In this document: positions 34,995-39,564 of the stretch, one piece after another | Position numbering within the stretch: position 1 is the stretch's first letter | Layout: the number at the start of each line of letters is the position of its first letter | Origin: a virus | DNA: 41,145 nucleotides | IMG/VR virus record: IMGVR_UViG_3300028196_000027 | Coordinates: 1-41,145 of that record | Reading direction: 5' to 3' (one strand) | Position numbers and translations under genes: made by a program | Notes under the pieces: generated by a model | The model's input: only the letters and a program-made list of their open reading frames with translations | Database searches by the model: none | Told to the model about the DNA's origin: nothing

Positions 34995-36881
34995 TTATCT
35001 TGTATAAGTTCCGTTTGAGTAACTTGATGTTATAATATATTCTGTAGCTGACGTATTTTCTCCAGAAGTAATCTTATCTTCAATCATATTAACTATAAGA
35101 TTTTCTGAACTTAATTCTAAGTATATATCCTTCAATGCAATTACATCGTTTGACTCTGGAATTGCCTGAACTTCTATTCCATTAGGACTATTAGTTCCAA
35201 CTATATTTACTGTGTCTAATAATACTTCTCCTTTTTTATAATAAACAGTTCCTGCACTATTATTAACAATAAATGGAATATTATTTTTTAAACTAAAGAA
35301 AAATATTGTTCCATAGTCATTATTAACTGGAACATCAGACATATAAACTGTACCATCAACATTAGATATATTAAATCCTGTTGATTTAATATTATATCCT
35401 CTATTATCAATTACATTATTTTTCTTTATATGGAATCTATTACCAAAACACAACTCATAAGTTGCAAAAATATTTAACAGTGGTTGAAAATCTCTCCTCA
35501 TAATAACTTTCGTAATGTTTGATGTAATTGCTGGACTAATGCTATCAATCAATGCATTAACTTTACTATACTTAAATCTTCCTCCAAAATTATTTAATTC
35601 AAAAGAAGAACCGTAAGATTGTAGAGATTCTATGACCTGTTTTTGTAACTCTGATACTTCACCAATAGAACCTTTGTCATAGTAAACACTAGTATTCAAT
35701 TCTATGTAAAGATACTTTAAATCGATTATTTCTGGTTTGATACCAGCAATTGCATATTGCTTTAATTCTTTTTTAATTTGTTCTTTTGTTATTTTTGATA
35801 TAAACCTACCTTGTCTGGGTTTGACTGATATGAATACTTTACCATACTCTGGGGGATCTACTTCATCACCACCATAAGCACTAACTGATTCTACATTAGG
35901 AAAAATATATGGTATTAGTCCTTTGTAATCATTAGCAGTTACTGCTCTATATTGAGATGAATATACTCTAGGTGCGAGATATTTTACACTATCGATTTTT
36001 TCAATATCATCACCATTTTCAGATGCTGCTAATGTTGTAATTGGTGATATACCTGTAGTTATTTTATTTTGATTATTATCTTCTAAAATTCCGGTGAAAC
36101 TGAATTTAGCACAACCATTTCCAATTTTTCCATTAGTTACAATATAACTTGCAAAAACTGAACTTCCAGACTGTGGTCTCTTACCAAAAACATTATCACC
36201 AAAGATTATTTCATATGTTTCATCTTCTACTTCTTGAAATAAGAATATCTTAGAATTAGAATCAATATTTAATATATTTGAATATGCCTTATATTCTTCA
36301 GTTGTAGTCTCACTAACAAATACACGAATGCTTGTAGTATCAATACGTGGATTTGGTAGAACAAATCTTTGATTTTGTAAAGAATTGTTGATTGAGAATG
36401 ACTTTGTTAAAAATACACCCTCTGATATTAAAATGTCATTAAAAAATGCAAATCCTAAAGCATCAACAGATACTGTAATATCTTCTGGGATAGAAAAAAT
36501 ATAACTACCTGCTGAAATATCCCCTAATGCTACGACTCCTGCCTTTAATGTTACTGTTTTTACATCTAAAAATCCTTCAGTATTAACACTAAAACTAATT
36601 TTTGCTTTTGATGACCTTGCTGATCTAGGAACATATCCAATATTTCTGGCAAGTGATACTATATTTTCTCTAATAGTAGCACTATCTAGAAAAGATTCAT
36701 TTACCGTCATATTTGTGTTATATGACGTAATATAAGAATTATATGCTAGTAAATCAATTAACGTTGAAAAGTTTGAACCTTCAAAGTCAAAATCAGTAAA
36801 ATTACTGTTTTCTCTTAAGTAATCTTTTAGTTGGATTTTTAGATTATCAAAATCTAAATTTGTAAACTGATTAAACGACAT
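34995..36881 (-). CDS. 6: baseplate wedge protein gp6, 628 aa
   Basis: This is a textbook T4-like gp6: MSFNQFTNLDFDNLKIQLKD, then DFEGSNFSTLIDLLAYNSYI and ESFLDSATIRENIVSLARNI followed by GYVPRSARS. The central part has the Baseplate_J-like core (EIIFGDNVFGKRPQSGS, YRAVTANDYKGLIPYIFPNV, YGKVFISVKP), and the C-terminal third has LNNFGGRFKYSKVNALIDS. Length is close to T4 gp6 (660 aa). gp6 dimers form the ring that ties wedges together around the hub. It sits six bases after the gp25 stop, the order seen in T4-like marine phages. Confidence 0.96.
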   Translation of the reverse strand: MSFNQFTNLDFDNLKIQLKDYLRENSNFTDFDFEGSNFSTLIDLLAYNSYITSYNTNMTVNESFLDSATIRENIVSLARNIGYVPRSARSSKAKISFSVNTEGFLDVKTVTLKAGVVALGDISAGSYIFSIPEDITVSVDALGFAFFNDILISEGVFLTKSFSINNSLQNQRFVLPNPRIDTTSIRVFVSETTTEEYKAYSNILNIDSNSKIFLFQEVEDETYEIIFGDNVFGKRPQSGSSVFASYIVTNGKIGNGCAKFSFTGILEDNNQNKITTGISPITTLAASENGDDIEKIDSVKYLAPRVYSSQYRAVTANDYKGLIPYIFPNVESVSAYGGDEVDPPEYGKVFISVKPRQGRFISKITKEQIKKELKQYAIAGIKPEIIDLKYLYIELNTSVYYDKGSIGEVSELQKQVIESLQSYGSSFELNNFGGRFKYSKVNALIDSISPAITSNITKVIMRRDFQPLLNIFATYELCFGNRFHIKKNNVIDNRGYNIKSTGFNISNVDGTVYMSDVPVNNDYGTIFFFSLKNNIPFIVNNSAGTVYYKKGEVLLDTVNIVGTNSPNGIEVQAIPESNDVIALKDIYLELSSENLIVNMIEDKITSGENTSATEYIITSSYSNGTYTR

Positions 36882-36887
36882 TATTCT

Positions 36888-37283
36888 TTAAGTTGGTGAT
36901 AAGATGAAATTTACTTTTTGTGGTAAAATACCTAGACCAATAATGTCATAGACAACTTGAACATTCAATTCATTACCGTCTTCTGTAATATCAACATCAA
37001 TTCTATCAATTTTAATTCTTGGTTCATAGTTATCAAGGGCAGATCTGATATCATCCCTTACCGTAAATACTACATCTTGAGTAGCATTCTCAAATATATA
37101 ATCATTTATCCTGGTTCCAAGATTAGCATCAAAAAATCTTTCACCTAATGAAGTTCTTATGATATTAGATACGGATTTTTTAATTGCATCTTCATTCTTA
37201 AGAATTAAAATATCATTAGTTACGGGATGTTTAGTAAAAGATAAACTAATATCTTTAAATGACCTTGAAACCTCTATTGACAT
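36888..37283 (-). CDS. 25: baseplate wedge protein gp25, 131 aa
   Basis: Length equals the T4 gp25 class (132 aa) and the GPW/gp25 fold signature is present: LSFTKHPVTNDILILKNEDA, IKKSVSNIIRTSLGERFFD, LGTRINDYIFE, and the closing strand NVQVVYDIIG. gp25 starts wedge core assembly with gp6 and gp53 and resembles the sheath-initiator subunits of other contractile systems. No clear ribosome binding site precedes ATG at 37283. A degenerate ATTAAATA (37299-37306) might be a weak late promoter. The gene opens the structural block here. Confidence 0.95.
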   Translation of the reverse strand: MSIEVSRSFKDISLSFTKHPVTNDILILKNEDAIKKSVSNIIRTSLGERFFDANLGTRINDYIFENATQDVVFTVRDDIRSALDNYEPRIKIDRIDVDITEDGNELNVQVVYDIIGLGILPQKVNFILSPT

Positions 37284-37322: not shown

Positions 37323-37472
37323 TTAAATTGTTTTATTTTTTTTCTGTTCATTAAGTGTTTCTTCTGTACCATTCCTCTTTTTTGGCTTGGTCCAATAGTC
37401 TGTTATTAACGATGTAGTTCCCCACATCTTGTACATGTACTCAGTATCTCTGTCAACATGATACTTTGCCAT
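37323..37472 (-). CDS. small hypothetical protein, 49 aa
   Basis: ATG at 37472 opens 49 codons ending in TAA at 37323. The protein begins MAKYHVDRDTEYMYKMWGTT and has a Lys/Asn/Glu-rich tail (NEQKKNKTI). It is preceded by a strong AGGAG five bases from the ATG, and the frame fills the gap between gp25 and the 211-aa gene, which supports coding. No domain is recognised. The aromatic-rich middle (Tyr, Trp) and charged tail suggest a small folded head with a disordered C-terminus. Confidence 0.65.
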   Translation of the reverse strand: MAKYHVDRDTEYMYKMWGTTSLITDYWTKPKKRNGTEETLNEQKKNKTI

Positions 37473-37530: not shown

Positions 37531-38166
37531 TTACTCTTTTTCTAAATTCTTAATCTCATACATGTAATGATCAGAAGTTTCCAGTTTTTTCTTATTTTCA
37601 ACTGAATAAACAGTCAAATCAATCTCATAACCAGGATTTTTCTCAATTCTATTGAATACCCAAGCATTATCGTACCAAATAATACGATTGTTGGGGTATG
37701 CATAGTAATTCCCAGTCTCAACTTTGAACAAATGGGCACATTTATGCTCTGGAGTCTCCGAAAAATTTAAATCTGGCACTCCCTTGTTCTCCCAAGACCA
37801 ATCTAGGGTGAACATATATGTTCCAAGTACCTTTTTTCCGTCTGGACGTATCAATTGTGCATCTAAATTAGCTAGTCTATGCCTTCTCTGAACGTCTATG
37901 TAAGGTGAAAAGCAGTCCCAGTACATTATGTCCTCTAAAGGCTCTATGGGTGCGTCTTCTTTCCAGCAAAAGGCATGTAAAGGTCGTCTAGTCCAGTTCA
38001 CACCGTTCTCTAGAAATGCTTCAAAGAGAGGAACTCTCTTCTCAATACTAGCAACAGAGTGAATGTCACACTTTGTAACCTCCCCATGTCCTTTTTTATG
38101 GTTATAAAGGAACTCATTACGAATATAACAAGACCAATCAGGTAAACTATGGTTTAGGTAAGCCAA
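37531..38166 (-). CDS. conserved hypothetical protein, 211 aa, TTG start
   Basis: The frame begins at TTG (38166), chosen because AGGAG stands seven bases upstream and no in-frame ATG occurs until about residue 80. It overlaps the SET-domain gene by 13 bases. The protein is rich in Trp, Tyr and His (MAYLNHSLPDWSCYIRNEFL, FTLDWSW, KCAHLFKVETGNYYAYPNNR, IIWYDNAWVF). I recognise no catalytic motif or named family; proteins of this kind occur in T4-like cyanophage genomes as hypotheticals. Scattered Cys and His (HALFCWK-like, EHKCAH) could bind metal, but no regular zinc motif is visible. Partnership with the SET protein is suggested by overlap only. Confidence 0.8.
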   Translation of the reverse strand: MAYLNHSLPDWSCYIRNEFLYNHKKGHGEVTKCDIHSVASIEKRVPLFEAFLENGVNWTRRPLHAFCWKEDAPIEPLEDIMYWDCFSPYIDVQRRHRLANLDAQLIRPDGKKVLGTYMFTLDWSWENKGVPDLNFSETPEHKCAHLFKVETGNYYAYPNNRIIWYDNAWVFNRIEKNPGYEIDLTVYSVENKKKLETSDHYMYEIKNLEKE

Positions 38167-38525
38167 CCTCTTTCTCCTGGGAAGTAATAATCTGTTAATT
38201 CTTCACCTTTTTTGATATCACGAACAGAATATAACTCACCAGTGTCCTTATTGTATGCAACGTTTGGTGAATTTGAGTGATTTATGTAATATTGTTGTCC
38301 AATACGGTCTAAATCACAGTCAATCCAAAACCCATGCTCATCACCATACACTAGGTTTTCTATATTGTTCCTGATTTCGGGTGAAACTTCACACCAAAAT
38401 ACATGTTTCTTCTCTTTTGGTTTAAAAATACAGGTATCTTGAGGAATATCAACTAAAGAAAAAACACCTACTCCACCACAAACGGAACTAGGTGCCAAAT
38501 AAGTTAACAATTGAAGGTTATACAC
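38154..38525 (-). CDS. SET-domain protein lysine methyltransferase-like, 123 aa
   Basis: SET hallmarks appear in order: GGVGVFSLVDIP (residues 17-28, the GxG strand), YYINHSNSPNV (79-89, equivalent of the NHxxxPN motif that binds S-adenosylmethionine and forms the pseudoknot), and SVRDIKKGEELTDYYF (100-115, with the catalytic-site Tyr region G-E-E-L-T-x-Y). At 123 aa it is a minimal SET domain without pre- or post-SET cysteine clusters. It starts at GTG directly after the TGA of the basic 47-aa gene, with GAGG four bases before. The expected activity is S-adenosylmethionine-dependent lysine methylation of a protein; the target is unknown. SET-like proteins are known in cyanophages. Confidence 0.88.
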   Translation of the reverse strand: MYNLQLLTYLAPSSVCGGVGVFSLVDIPQDTCIFKPKEKKHVFWCEVSPEIRNNIENLVYGDEHGFWIDCDLDRIGQQYYINHSNSPNVAYNKDTGELYSVRDIKKGEELTDYYFPGERGWLT

Positions 38526-38669
38526 TCAACCTCGTCCTTGACCACGATATGCTTTCCGTGCCTTATTACGACTCGTTGCAGCATACTTAGTGTTCTTACC
38601 ACTTCCTTGACGAGTATTCTTTGGTAGTGATTCAATTTTGTTATCACCCATCAGACGACGATTTGCCAT
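38526..38669 (-). CDS. small basic protein, 47 aa
   Basis: ATG at 38669 follows AAGGAG nine bases upstream, and TGA at 38526 is immediately followed by the GTG start of the SET gene. The protein begins MANRRLMGDNKIESLPKNTR and continues with TKYAATSRNKARKAYRGQG. It is very rich in Lys, Arg, Gly, Ser and Asn, has no hydrophobic core and is probably disordered. I recall similar short proteins (MGDNKIESLPK core) in T4-like marine cyanophages. It could bind nucleic acid or be a substrate or partner of the adjacent SET protein; both ideas are inference. Confidence 0.82.
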   Translation of the reverse strand: MANRRLMGDNKIESLPKNTRQGSGKNTKYAATSRNKARKAYRGQGRG

Positions 38670-38719
38670 GATTAATTAATCTCCTTTTTAACGGTTTTTT
38701 CGGGTTTTTTTTTCTTATT

Positions 38720-38808: not shown

Positions 38809-39564
38809 TTAGATGACTCTAGTCTTCTCATGTCCAACACGAATCTTTGGATCGCACCAAATCTCAAATCCTGCTTCTTTTGCATCGAGACAGAATGAGA
38901 CATCTTCCCCGCACATATCTTGCACTTCACCAGAATCAAACACCTGCATCTTCGGAGCAAACCAGGGATACTCAAGATTCTCAAATACTCCCTTCTTAAT
39001 TAATACCCATCCGAAACCTGTGTAGTCAACTGTGAATGGTTTGCGACGTTTTGCCATGCTCTCAAGTGTCTCATGATTCATAACTCCACCATTGTTCTTG
39101 AAGTCATCCTCTTCTAACCAATGAGCAACTGATGATGTCTTTCCATCTTCTGTACAATACCATCCAGATGCAATGTCCTGGTCCATATCAACTAGACGAT
39201 AAAACTTCTCAGTATCAAATACAATATCACTATCAATCCATAACTGATAGTCATACTTCAATTTACCATCCCATGGTACTTGCTTTGGTCCACGCAATAC
39301 ATTTGCACCTAAACACTTACAACGTGCAAAGTTCACCATTGAACTATAATCTTGTGAAATCTGAATGCTTGCACCGTTCTGAACTAAGTCAAAACATAAC
39401 TGCACAAAACTCTTCAGAAATTGATATGATACTCCTCTTCCAGGAAGACAAAATACTACCGACTTCCCACGAATCTTTTCCTTTGCCCTCTCCATATTAA
39501 ATGCATCAGCATTCTCTGGATTTATTACCGGGGCTTTTGCTTTTACTGTGAATCCTTTAGCCAT
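38809..39564 (-). CDS. glycosyltransferase-like protein (GT-A fold), 251 aa
   Basis: After a short polar leader, residues 33-45 (GKSVVFCLPGRGVSY) form the first beta strand and nucleotide loop. Residues 106-115 (YQLWIDSDIV) contain a D-x-D motif (Asp111, Asp113), as in metal-dependent GT-A enzymes. Residues 182-195 (TGFGWVLIKKGVF) and 218-247 (MCGEDVSFCLDAKEAGFEIW, then VGHEK) match the acceptor-side 'E-D' and terminal His of GT2-like folds. Similar proteins occur in cyanophages. It probably moves a sugar onto phage DNA, protein or a host surface polymer; donor and acceptor are unknown. It has its own promoter and terminator, unlike its neighbours, so it may be expressed independently. Confidence 0.8.
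   Translation of the reverse strand: MAKGFTVKAKAPVINPENADAFNMERAKEKIRGKSVVFCLPGRGVSYQFLKSFVQLCFDLVQNGASIQISQDYSSMVNFARCKCLGANVLRGPKQVPWDGKLKYDYQLWIDSDIVFDTEKFYRLVDMDQDIASGWYCTEDGKTSSVAHWLEEDDFKNNGGVMNHETLESMAKRRKPFTVDYTGFGWVLIKKGVFENLEYPWFAPKMQVFDSGEVQDMCGEDVSFCLDAKEAGFEIWCDPKIRVGHEKTRVI

What the first reader, a model, noticed from the sequence alone, without database searches (positions are those of the whole stretch)
38154..38669. SET methyltransferase abutting a tiny Lys/Arg-rich tail-like protein
Seen: the basic 47-aa frame ends TGA and the SET gene begins GTG on the next base, so the two are almost certainly co-translated. The small protein is disordered-looking, with many Lys in SRNKARK-like settings, loosely like a histone tail. 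Known: SET enzymes methylate lysines of such tails. Inference: the basic protein may be the SET substrate or cofactor, giving a phage-encoded methylated DNA- or RNA-binding peptide.
Basis: partly seen in the sequence, partly recalled or inferred. Interest (0 to 1): 0.75.

Follow-up and report, generated by a model that had tools for sequence, protein, structure and literature searches.

The report
Phage methyltransferase in a cargo slot
A marine phage carries a small, probably active lysine-methylating enzyme whose gene starts where the gene for a tiny basic protein stops; the pairing is real and conserved, but the tiny protein mostly occurs without the enzyme, and the enzyme travels with the gene after it, so the tiny protein is not shown to be its target.

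Summary
In detail: a 47-aa basic ORF (38526-38669, -) ends TGA and a SET-domain ORF (38154-38525, -) starts GTG on the next base. The SET gene looks functional: Pfam SET far above cut-off, all motifs kept, best solved fold the viral vSET. The coupling is conserved: 110 of 112 distinct SET loci have the basic gene upstream, mostly abutting or overlapping. The substrate inference is not supported. The basic protein (PHROG 516) is in 435 GenBank cyanophage records; this SET is in 7. SET-less phages keep the same invariant lysines (K17, K39), and the H3-like 'ARK' context is rarer when SET is present. The slot after the basic gene also takes ferredoxin, an ATE/GNAT-like gene, unrelated ORFs and a second, smaller SET family. 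On trees, SET matches the downstream gene while the basic protein follows the baseplate backbone. Best reading: an accessory minimal methyltransferase, expressed by stop-start coupling from the conserved basic cistron and inherited as a cassette with a downstream protein modelled as two SH3-like (Tudor-like, not significant) barrels. Its target is open: the downstream protein, a host protein or, less likely, the basic protein.

The parts
38526..38669 (-). 47-aa basic small protein (SML), PHROG 516, ATG start, TGA stop
   Evidence: invariant PK..RQG and K.YRGQG motifs in relatives
38154..38525 (-). 123-aa minimal SET-domain methyltransferase, GTG start directly after the SML stop; GVGVF, NHSNSPN and EELTDYY motifs
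   Evidence: fold match to vSET 3kma
38535..38539 (-). AAGGA (with GAGGT at 38529-38533) inside the SML 3' end: Shine-Dalgarno-like site 9 nt (4 nt) before the SET GTG, encoded by the conserved RGQG codons
   Evidence: sequence; AAGGA in 50/110 coupled against 31/147 uncoupled SML ends, Fisher p 4e-5
38681..38685 (-). AGGAG Shine-Dalgarno site 11 nt upstream of the SML ATG
   Evidence: sequence
37531..38166 (-). 211-aa downstream protein (P3704 type A, PHROG 3704), start overlapping the SET 3' end; modelled as two SH3-like/Tudor-like barrels plus a low-confidence tail
   Evidence: directly after SET in 125 of 128 loci with enough sequence
37323..37472 (-). 49-aa ORF, PHROG 1414, unknown function
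36888..37283 (-). gp25 baseplate wedge / sheath-initiator protein
   Evidence: PF04965 E 4.6e-15
34995..36881 (-). gp6-like baseplate wedge protein
   Evidence: position and phmmer match to annotated gp6 homologues
38809..39564 (-). PHROG 1574 protein, distantly glycosyltransferase-like, upstream neighbour in most relatives

Best explanation
The SET gene encodes a minimal, probably active SAM-dependent protein-lysine methyltransferase of the vSET size class. It is accessory cargo in a conserved marine T4-like phage operon (PHROG 1574 or PAAR gene, basic 47-aa protein, [slot], PHROG 3704, gp25, gp6). Ribosomes that finish the basic cistron restart on the next gene, helped by a Shine-Dalgarno-like AAGGA in the codons for the invariant RGQG tail, so a gene placed there is expressed without its own signals. 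Adjacency to the basic protein therefore follows from the slot and is not by itself evidence of an enzyme-substrate pair. SET is inherited with the downstream PHROG 3704 protein as a two-gene cassette; its target is more likely that protein or a host protein than the basic peptide alone. Shown computationally: domain, motifs, coupling, optional presence, cargo variety, co-inheritance. Inferred: activity, re-initiation, target.
For: SET domain and intact motifs; best PDB fold match vSET 3kma, E 5.5e-6. Coupled junctions in many loci. Basic protein in 435 GenBank records against 7 for SET; no SET in the S-PM2, ACG-2014d and S-SKS1 records. SET presence changes at least 15 times (21 on the best tree) on the gp25+gp6 tree. 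Slot occupants of 314 distinct loci: SET1 80, P3704 13, SET2 9, a 200-aa family 8, ferredoxin 4, other families, 170 nothing coupled (ferredoxin and ATE_C by Pfam). AAGGA enriched when a gene is coupled. SET and P3704 distances: partial r 0.69 with gp25, gp6, PHROG 1574 and SML controlled; SET and SML 0.06. P3704 type changes once on the SET tree and 14 times on the gp25+gp6 tree; the SML K28/L28 haplotype changes 10 times on the SET tree and 6 on the gp tree, 16.6 when shuffled.
Against: Two distinct SET families both concentrate between SML and gp25, more than a neutral cargo slot easily explains, which keeps SML or baseplate proteins alive as targets. SET1 is by far the commonest coupled occupant in this sample, but the sample was fetched with SET queries. 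Within P3704 type A the SET-P3704 partial correlation disappears (0.045) and within type B it is 0.355, so the co-inheritance signal is mainly the deep A/B split and could reflect tight physical linkage. No expression, activity or target data exist.
Confidence: 0.58

Rival explanations
1. The basic 47-aa protein is the SET substrate: the phage makes a methylated nucleic-acid-binding or virion peptide.
For: Coupled adjacency in nearly all SET1 loci. A second SET family also follows the peptide: 73 of 85 loci, 13 with a 4-nt overlap. SET-bearing phages that lost the gene at this position carry a divergent relative after P3704; P-SSM7 and several SET2 podovirus-like contigs also encode a relative. 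Precedent: a C. pneumoniae SET protein interacts with histone H1-like Hc1 and Hc2 (PMC3089700), although the C. trachomatis enzyme did not methylate Hc1 (PMC2904774).
Against: The peptide mostly occurs without SET. Mean Lys 8.19 against 8.12; K17 and K39 are 100% with or without SET; the ARK motif is 20% with SET and 34% without. SET-SML distance partial correlation about 0. Pelagibacter phage Kolga has SET2 and no detectable peptide relative. In the joined model the peptide is unstructured and of very low confidence, pLDDT 35-43.
Confidence: 0.2
2. The downstream PHROG 3704 protein is the SET substrate or obligate partner, possibly a methyl-lysine-binding (Tudor-like) protein, in or near the baseplate.
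For: P3704 follows SET in 125 of 128 loci; the remaining three hits are the other SET family. Background in SET-less loci is 69 of 138. P3704 type changes once on the SET tree. The model is two small beta barrels; Foldseek's leading PDB hits are Spindlin, SETDB1, 53BP1 and PHF1 Tudor domains.
Against: P3704 is common without SET and was never seen beside SET2. Foldseek E-values are 0.038 or worse, model pLDDT is 68, and SH3-like barrels are generic (KOW and SH3 proteins are also hit). No lysine is found only in SET-bearing P3704 of both types.
Confidence: 0.19
3. The SET open frame is decayed or serves mainly as a translational relay between the basic gene and P3704, without enzyme function.
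For: It lies between two genes that are coupled directly in some SET-less phages (P3704 starting at -4 or -1 of the SML stop).
Against: Catalytic and SAM motifs are invariant in 48 diverse members at 49-93% identity to the window protein, with open frames; a relay would not keep them.
Confidence: 0.03

Closest known systems
[quoted passage not shown]
   Same: Virus-encoded stand-alone SET domain of similar small size; best Foldseek match of the modelled SET (E 5.5e-6). PBCV-1 infection raises H3K27 methylation in its algal host (PMC3089700).
   Different: 17% identity in the structural alignment; the host here is presumably a cyanobacterium without histones; locus is a T4-like baseplate operon; target unknown.
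Chlamydial SET protein NUE/CT737 and its C. pneumoniae homologue
   Same: Prokaryotic SET protein with a basic histone-like candidate partner (Hc1/Hc2).
   Different: Type III secreted and acts on host histones; reports on Hc1 disagree (PMC2904774); no operonic coupling to a 47-aa protein is described there.
PHROG 516 small basic protein of cyanophages (T4-like GC 394)
   Same: The window's 47-aa protein is a member (E 2.5e-22); the syntenic S-PM2 gene is annotated T4-LIKE GC: 394.
   Different: Most members lack a SET neighbour.
Mini-SET family found here (SET2: P-SSM7, P-RSM6, marine virus AG-345-P14, Pelagibacter phage Kolga)
   Same: SET domain above the Pfam cut-off; usually between SML and gp25; profile match to the window family, hhalign probability 96%.
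   Different: About 98 aa, no P3704; also found beside nrdB, sugar-nucleotide genes and in podovirus- and siphovirus-type genomes.

Membership tests
SET-domain protein methyltransferase (PF00856) | Profile score above the curated cut-off | tested here: met
   44 bits against 22.4, E 3.2e-11
SET-domain protein methyltransferase (PF00856) | SAM-site G-x-G and N-H-S-x-x-P-N motifs and catalytic Tyr in the EEL..YY motif | tested here: met
   G18, G20, N82, H83, N88, E109, L110, Y114 invariant in 48 members; S84, P87 nearly invariant
SET-domain protein methyltransferase (PF00856) | SET fold | tested here: met
   AF2 domain blocks mostly pLDDT 72-93; 99 PDB matches at E <= 0.001, the 50 listed almost all SET/PR domains, vSET first
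SET-domain protein methyltransferase (PF00856) | Lysine methyltransferase activity | not testable with these tools
   Needs an in vitro assay
vSET-type minimal viral SET | Stand-alone domain of about 120 aa without flanking domains | tested here: met
   123 aa
vSET-type minimal viral SET | Methylates a histone H3K27-type (ARKS) substrate | not testable with these tools
   Presumed cyanobacterial host has no histones (background knowledge)
Histone-tail-like SET substrate (claim for the 47-aa protein) | Lysines or ARK context kept specifically where SET is present | tested here: not met
   K17 and K39 100% in both; ARK 20% with SET, 34% without
PHROG 516 small basic protein | Profile match and position between PHROG 1574/PAAR and gp25 | tested here: met
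Tudor-type methyl-lysine reader (claim for P3704) | Significant fold match to Tudor domains | tested here: inconclusive
   Leading hits are Tudor domains but E >= 0.038, model pLDDT 68
Tudor-type methyl-lysine reader (claim for P3704) | Aromatic cage | not tested

The most novel reading that the evidence does not exclude
Marine phages carry a compact methyl-lysine system in their baseplate operon: a writer (SET), a reader-like protein with two Tudor-like barrels (PHROG 3704) and a conserved basic tail-like peptide (PHROG 516), used to mark a virion or host protein during infection of cells that have no histones.
Probability: 0.1. Interest if true: 0.87.

Novelty: new variant of a known kind. 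Interest (0 to 1): 0.5.

Why it matters
It shows that minimal SET lysine methyltransferases, best known from eukaryotic chromatin and one algal virus, form at least two families in marine phages (hundreds of viral contigs), mostly in a fixed genomic slot. That makes protein lysine methylation in phage infection testable with cultured phages. It also identifies a near-universal basic phage peptide whose gene's 3' end may act as a docking point for cargo genes, and warns that conserved, translationally coupled adjacency does not by itself identify an enzyme's substrate.

Tried and rejected
1) 'SET goes only with P3704 type A': suggested by the first sample (78 of 84 typed loci) and by paired tests, dropped after wider sampling (71 type A, 60 type B); the surviving result is that type and SET clade match. 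2) 'Two SET loci lack the basic gene': L033/L036 carry a divergent relative after P3704. 3) SET homologue in bacterial or archaeal genomes as source or substrate clue: no relative found. 4) Joined model of peptide and SET (TGA read as W) to look for docking: peptide unstructured, no information. 5) Solved structures for the peptide or P3704: none significant by sequence. 6) Virion proteomics: the published table of S-CREM2 virions lists gp25- and gp6-type wedge proteins but no ORF between ORF116 and ORF120 (PMC10665884); small Lys/Arg-rich proteins are easily missed and the S-CREM2 relative lies elsewhere in its genome, so not used. 7) 'PurM' and 'ferredoxin' labels on P3704: no such Pfam domain; a real ferredoxin lies in this slot in other phages, so the PHROG label may come from there (inference).

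Full report
WHAT IS THERE. The window is a 41,145-base virus record of T4-like cyanophage type. On the minus strand the order is: PHROG 1574 protein (39564-38809), a 47-aa basic protein (38669-38526; here SML), a 123-aa SET-domain protein (38525-38154), a 211-aa protein (38166-37531; PHROG 3704, here P3704), a 49-aa ORF, gp25 and gp6. The SML stop TGA is followed directly by the SET GTG, and the P3704 frame overlaps the SET end.

IS THE SET GENE REAL. PF00856 matches at 44 bits against a 22.4-bit cut-off. In 48 diverse relatives the GVGVF, NHSxxPN and EEL...Y positions are invariant or nearly so. The AlphaFold domain has vSET of PBCV-1 as its best solved match, E 5.5e-6, followed by Set7 and MLL-type SET domains. 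GenBank relatives are few: seven records, one annotated as SET-domain lysine methyltransferase. IMG/VR holds many: 146 and 207 confirmed stretches with two queries. No relative was found in 84,980 bacterial and archaeal genomes by the pattern-based scan. A full-text search for 'cyanophage' with 'SET domain' found no paper in the library held.

IS THE PAIR CONSERVED. Of 112 distinct SET loci with at least 300 nt upstream, 110 have SML before SET; the commonest distance is under 10 nt. Junctions are ATGA, TTGA or GTGA overlaps, TAATG or TAGTG overlaps, or direct abutment. The two exceptions, L033 and L036, lost SML there but encode a divergent relative just after P3704, ending KKAYRGQGRK and KKRYRGQGRR. 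So SET without any SML-type protein was not seen in a full interval of this family.

BUT SML DOES NOT NEED SET. SML is in 435 GenBank phage records; this SET is in 7 (isolates are redundant, so read the ratio loosely). The S-PM2, ACG-2014d and S-SKS1 records, and long contigs, have SML and no SET domain. On a gp25+gp6 tree of 121 loci SET presence changes at least 15 times on supported branches, 21 on the best tree. Relatives of SML also occur in phage contigs binned with Flavobacteria and, more distantly, in podovirus Syn5 (gp19), siphovirus S-CBS2 and S-CREM2. Its function is unknown.

LYSINES. If SET used SML, lysines should be kept or gained where SET is present. They are not: 100 SET+ and 134 SET- distinct sequences have 8.19 and 8.12 lysines on average, K17 and K39 are 100% in both, K28 is 75% and 69%, and the ARK motif is 20% and 34%. 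The SET- set was ranked by similarity to two queries, so it is not a random sample.

A CARGO SLOT. What follows SML varies. In 314 distinct loci the ORF starting within -8 to +12 nt of the SML stop is SET1 in 80, P3704 itself in 13, the second SET family in 9, a 200-aa family in 8, ferredoxin in 4, other families in the rest, and nothing coupled in 170 (Pfam names: Fer2, and ATE_C just above its cut-off). A few ORFs in the 'other' class are SET genes missed by the classifier (L204, L208, L305). The codons for the invariant RGQG tail can spell AAGGA, a ribosome-binding core, a few bases before the next start; AAGGA is in 50 of 110 coupled and 31 of 147 uncoupled SML ends, and TGA stops are likewise enriched (related sequences, so p-values are optimistic). 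This explains adjacency without any enzyme-substrate link.

WHAT SET TRAVELS WITH. P3704 follows SET in 125 of 128 loci with enough sequence, against 69 of 138 SET-less loci; the other three hits turned out to be the second SET family. Pairwise distances of SET correlate with those of P3704 (partial r 0.69 with gp25, gp6, PHROG 1574 and SML controlled) and not with SML (0.06). Most of this is the split of P3704 into types A and B; within types it is 0.045 and 0.355. The clearest form: P3704 type changes once on the SET tree but 14 times on the gp25+gp6 tree of the same phages, whereas the SML K28/L28 haplotype changes 6 times on the gp25+gp6 tree and 10 times on the SET tree, 16.6 when shuffled. 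Both junctions are physically tight, yet only SET-P3704 is inherited as a unit.

P3704. Its 68-pLDDT model has two small beta barrels. The leading Foldseek hits in PDB are tandem Tudor proteins (Spindlin, SETDB1, 53BP1) and PHF1, all with E of 0.038 or worse, mixed with KOW and SH3 proteins. A methyl-lysine reader beside a SET writer is attractive but unproven; P3704 without SET is common. The 'PurM' label in records is not supported by Pfam.

A SECOND SET FAMILY. Three loci whose SET hit lacked P3704 led to a distinct 94-99-aa SET family (Pfam 36.7-47.8 bits), with 101 confirmed IMG/VR stretches and members in P-SSM7, P-RSM6, a marine virus and Pelagibacter phage Kolga. In 73 of 85 loci SML is upstream, 13 with a 4-nt overlap, and gp25 usually follows closely; P3704 was never found there. 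Elsewhere it sits beside nrdB, sugar-nucleotide genes, or in podovirus-type contigs with a high-light-inducible-type gene (identity by eye); Kolga has no detectable SML relative. This cuts both ways: two SET families near SML strengthen the link, while SET2 in genomes and places without SML suggests that it can work without it.

VERDICT. Observation confirmed, interpretation partly supported. Most likely an accessory, active minimal SET methyltransferase in a cargo slot, expressed by coupling to a conserved basic cistron and co-inherited with the downstream protein; target unknown. The SML-substrate reading stays possible at about 0.2 and is cheap to test.

Noticed in passing
L307:434-730, L310:4151-4432, L317:2967-3263; L331-L408: A second, smaller phage SET family (about 98 aa), mostly between the basic gene and gp25, also in P-SSM7, P-RSM6 and Pelagibacter phage Kolga.
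   Followed up: partly
window 37531-38166 (-): Protein labelled PurM in GenBank relatives and ferredoxin in PHROGs models as two SH3-like barrels with weak Tudor-like matches; both labels look mis-transferred.
   Followed up: partly
L140, L164, L165 after the basic gene; L283: Other genes coupled to the basic gene in the same slot: a 2Fe-2S ferredoxin and an ATE_C/GNAT-like protein.
   Followed up: partly
L361, L401, L402, L405, L406, L408: ORFs of 192-228 aa coupled to the basic gene look, by eye only, like heme oxygenases.
   Followed up: no
L033:3798-3956, L036:4458-4616, L400:398-550, L417:1384-1527: Divergent basic peptides ending K-x-YRGQG, also in Syn5 gp19, S-CBS2 and S-CREM2: the 47-aa family reaches beyond T4-like phages.
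   Followed up: partly
L427:3944-4093 (Nonlabens xiamenensis contig), L429, L430: The basic peptide lies between a PAAR-type gene and gp25 in T4-like phage sequence binned with or assembled in Flavobacteria.
   Followed up: partly
L030:1871-2038: A further small, very basic ORF (MSKSGKYGKTKRSNTG...KAGRKYKFH) is inserted between the basic gene and SET.
   Followed up: no
L090, L092, L096, L104 between the basic gene and P3704: Loci with P3704 type A but no SET have a hairpin followed by a T-run (terminator-like, by eye) in place of the SET gene.
   Followed up: no
L091, L117, L127, L129, L146, L156, L256: An uncharacterised family of about 200 aa coupled to the basic gene in SET-less phages; no Pfam match.
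   Followed up: partly
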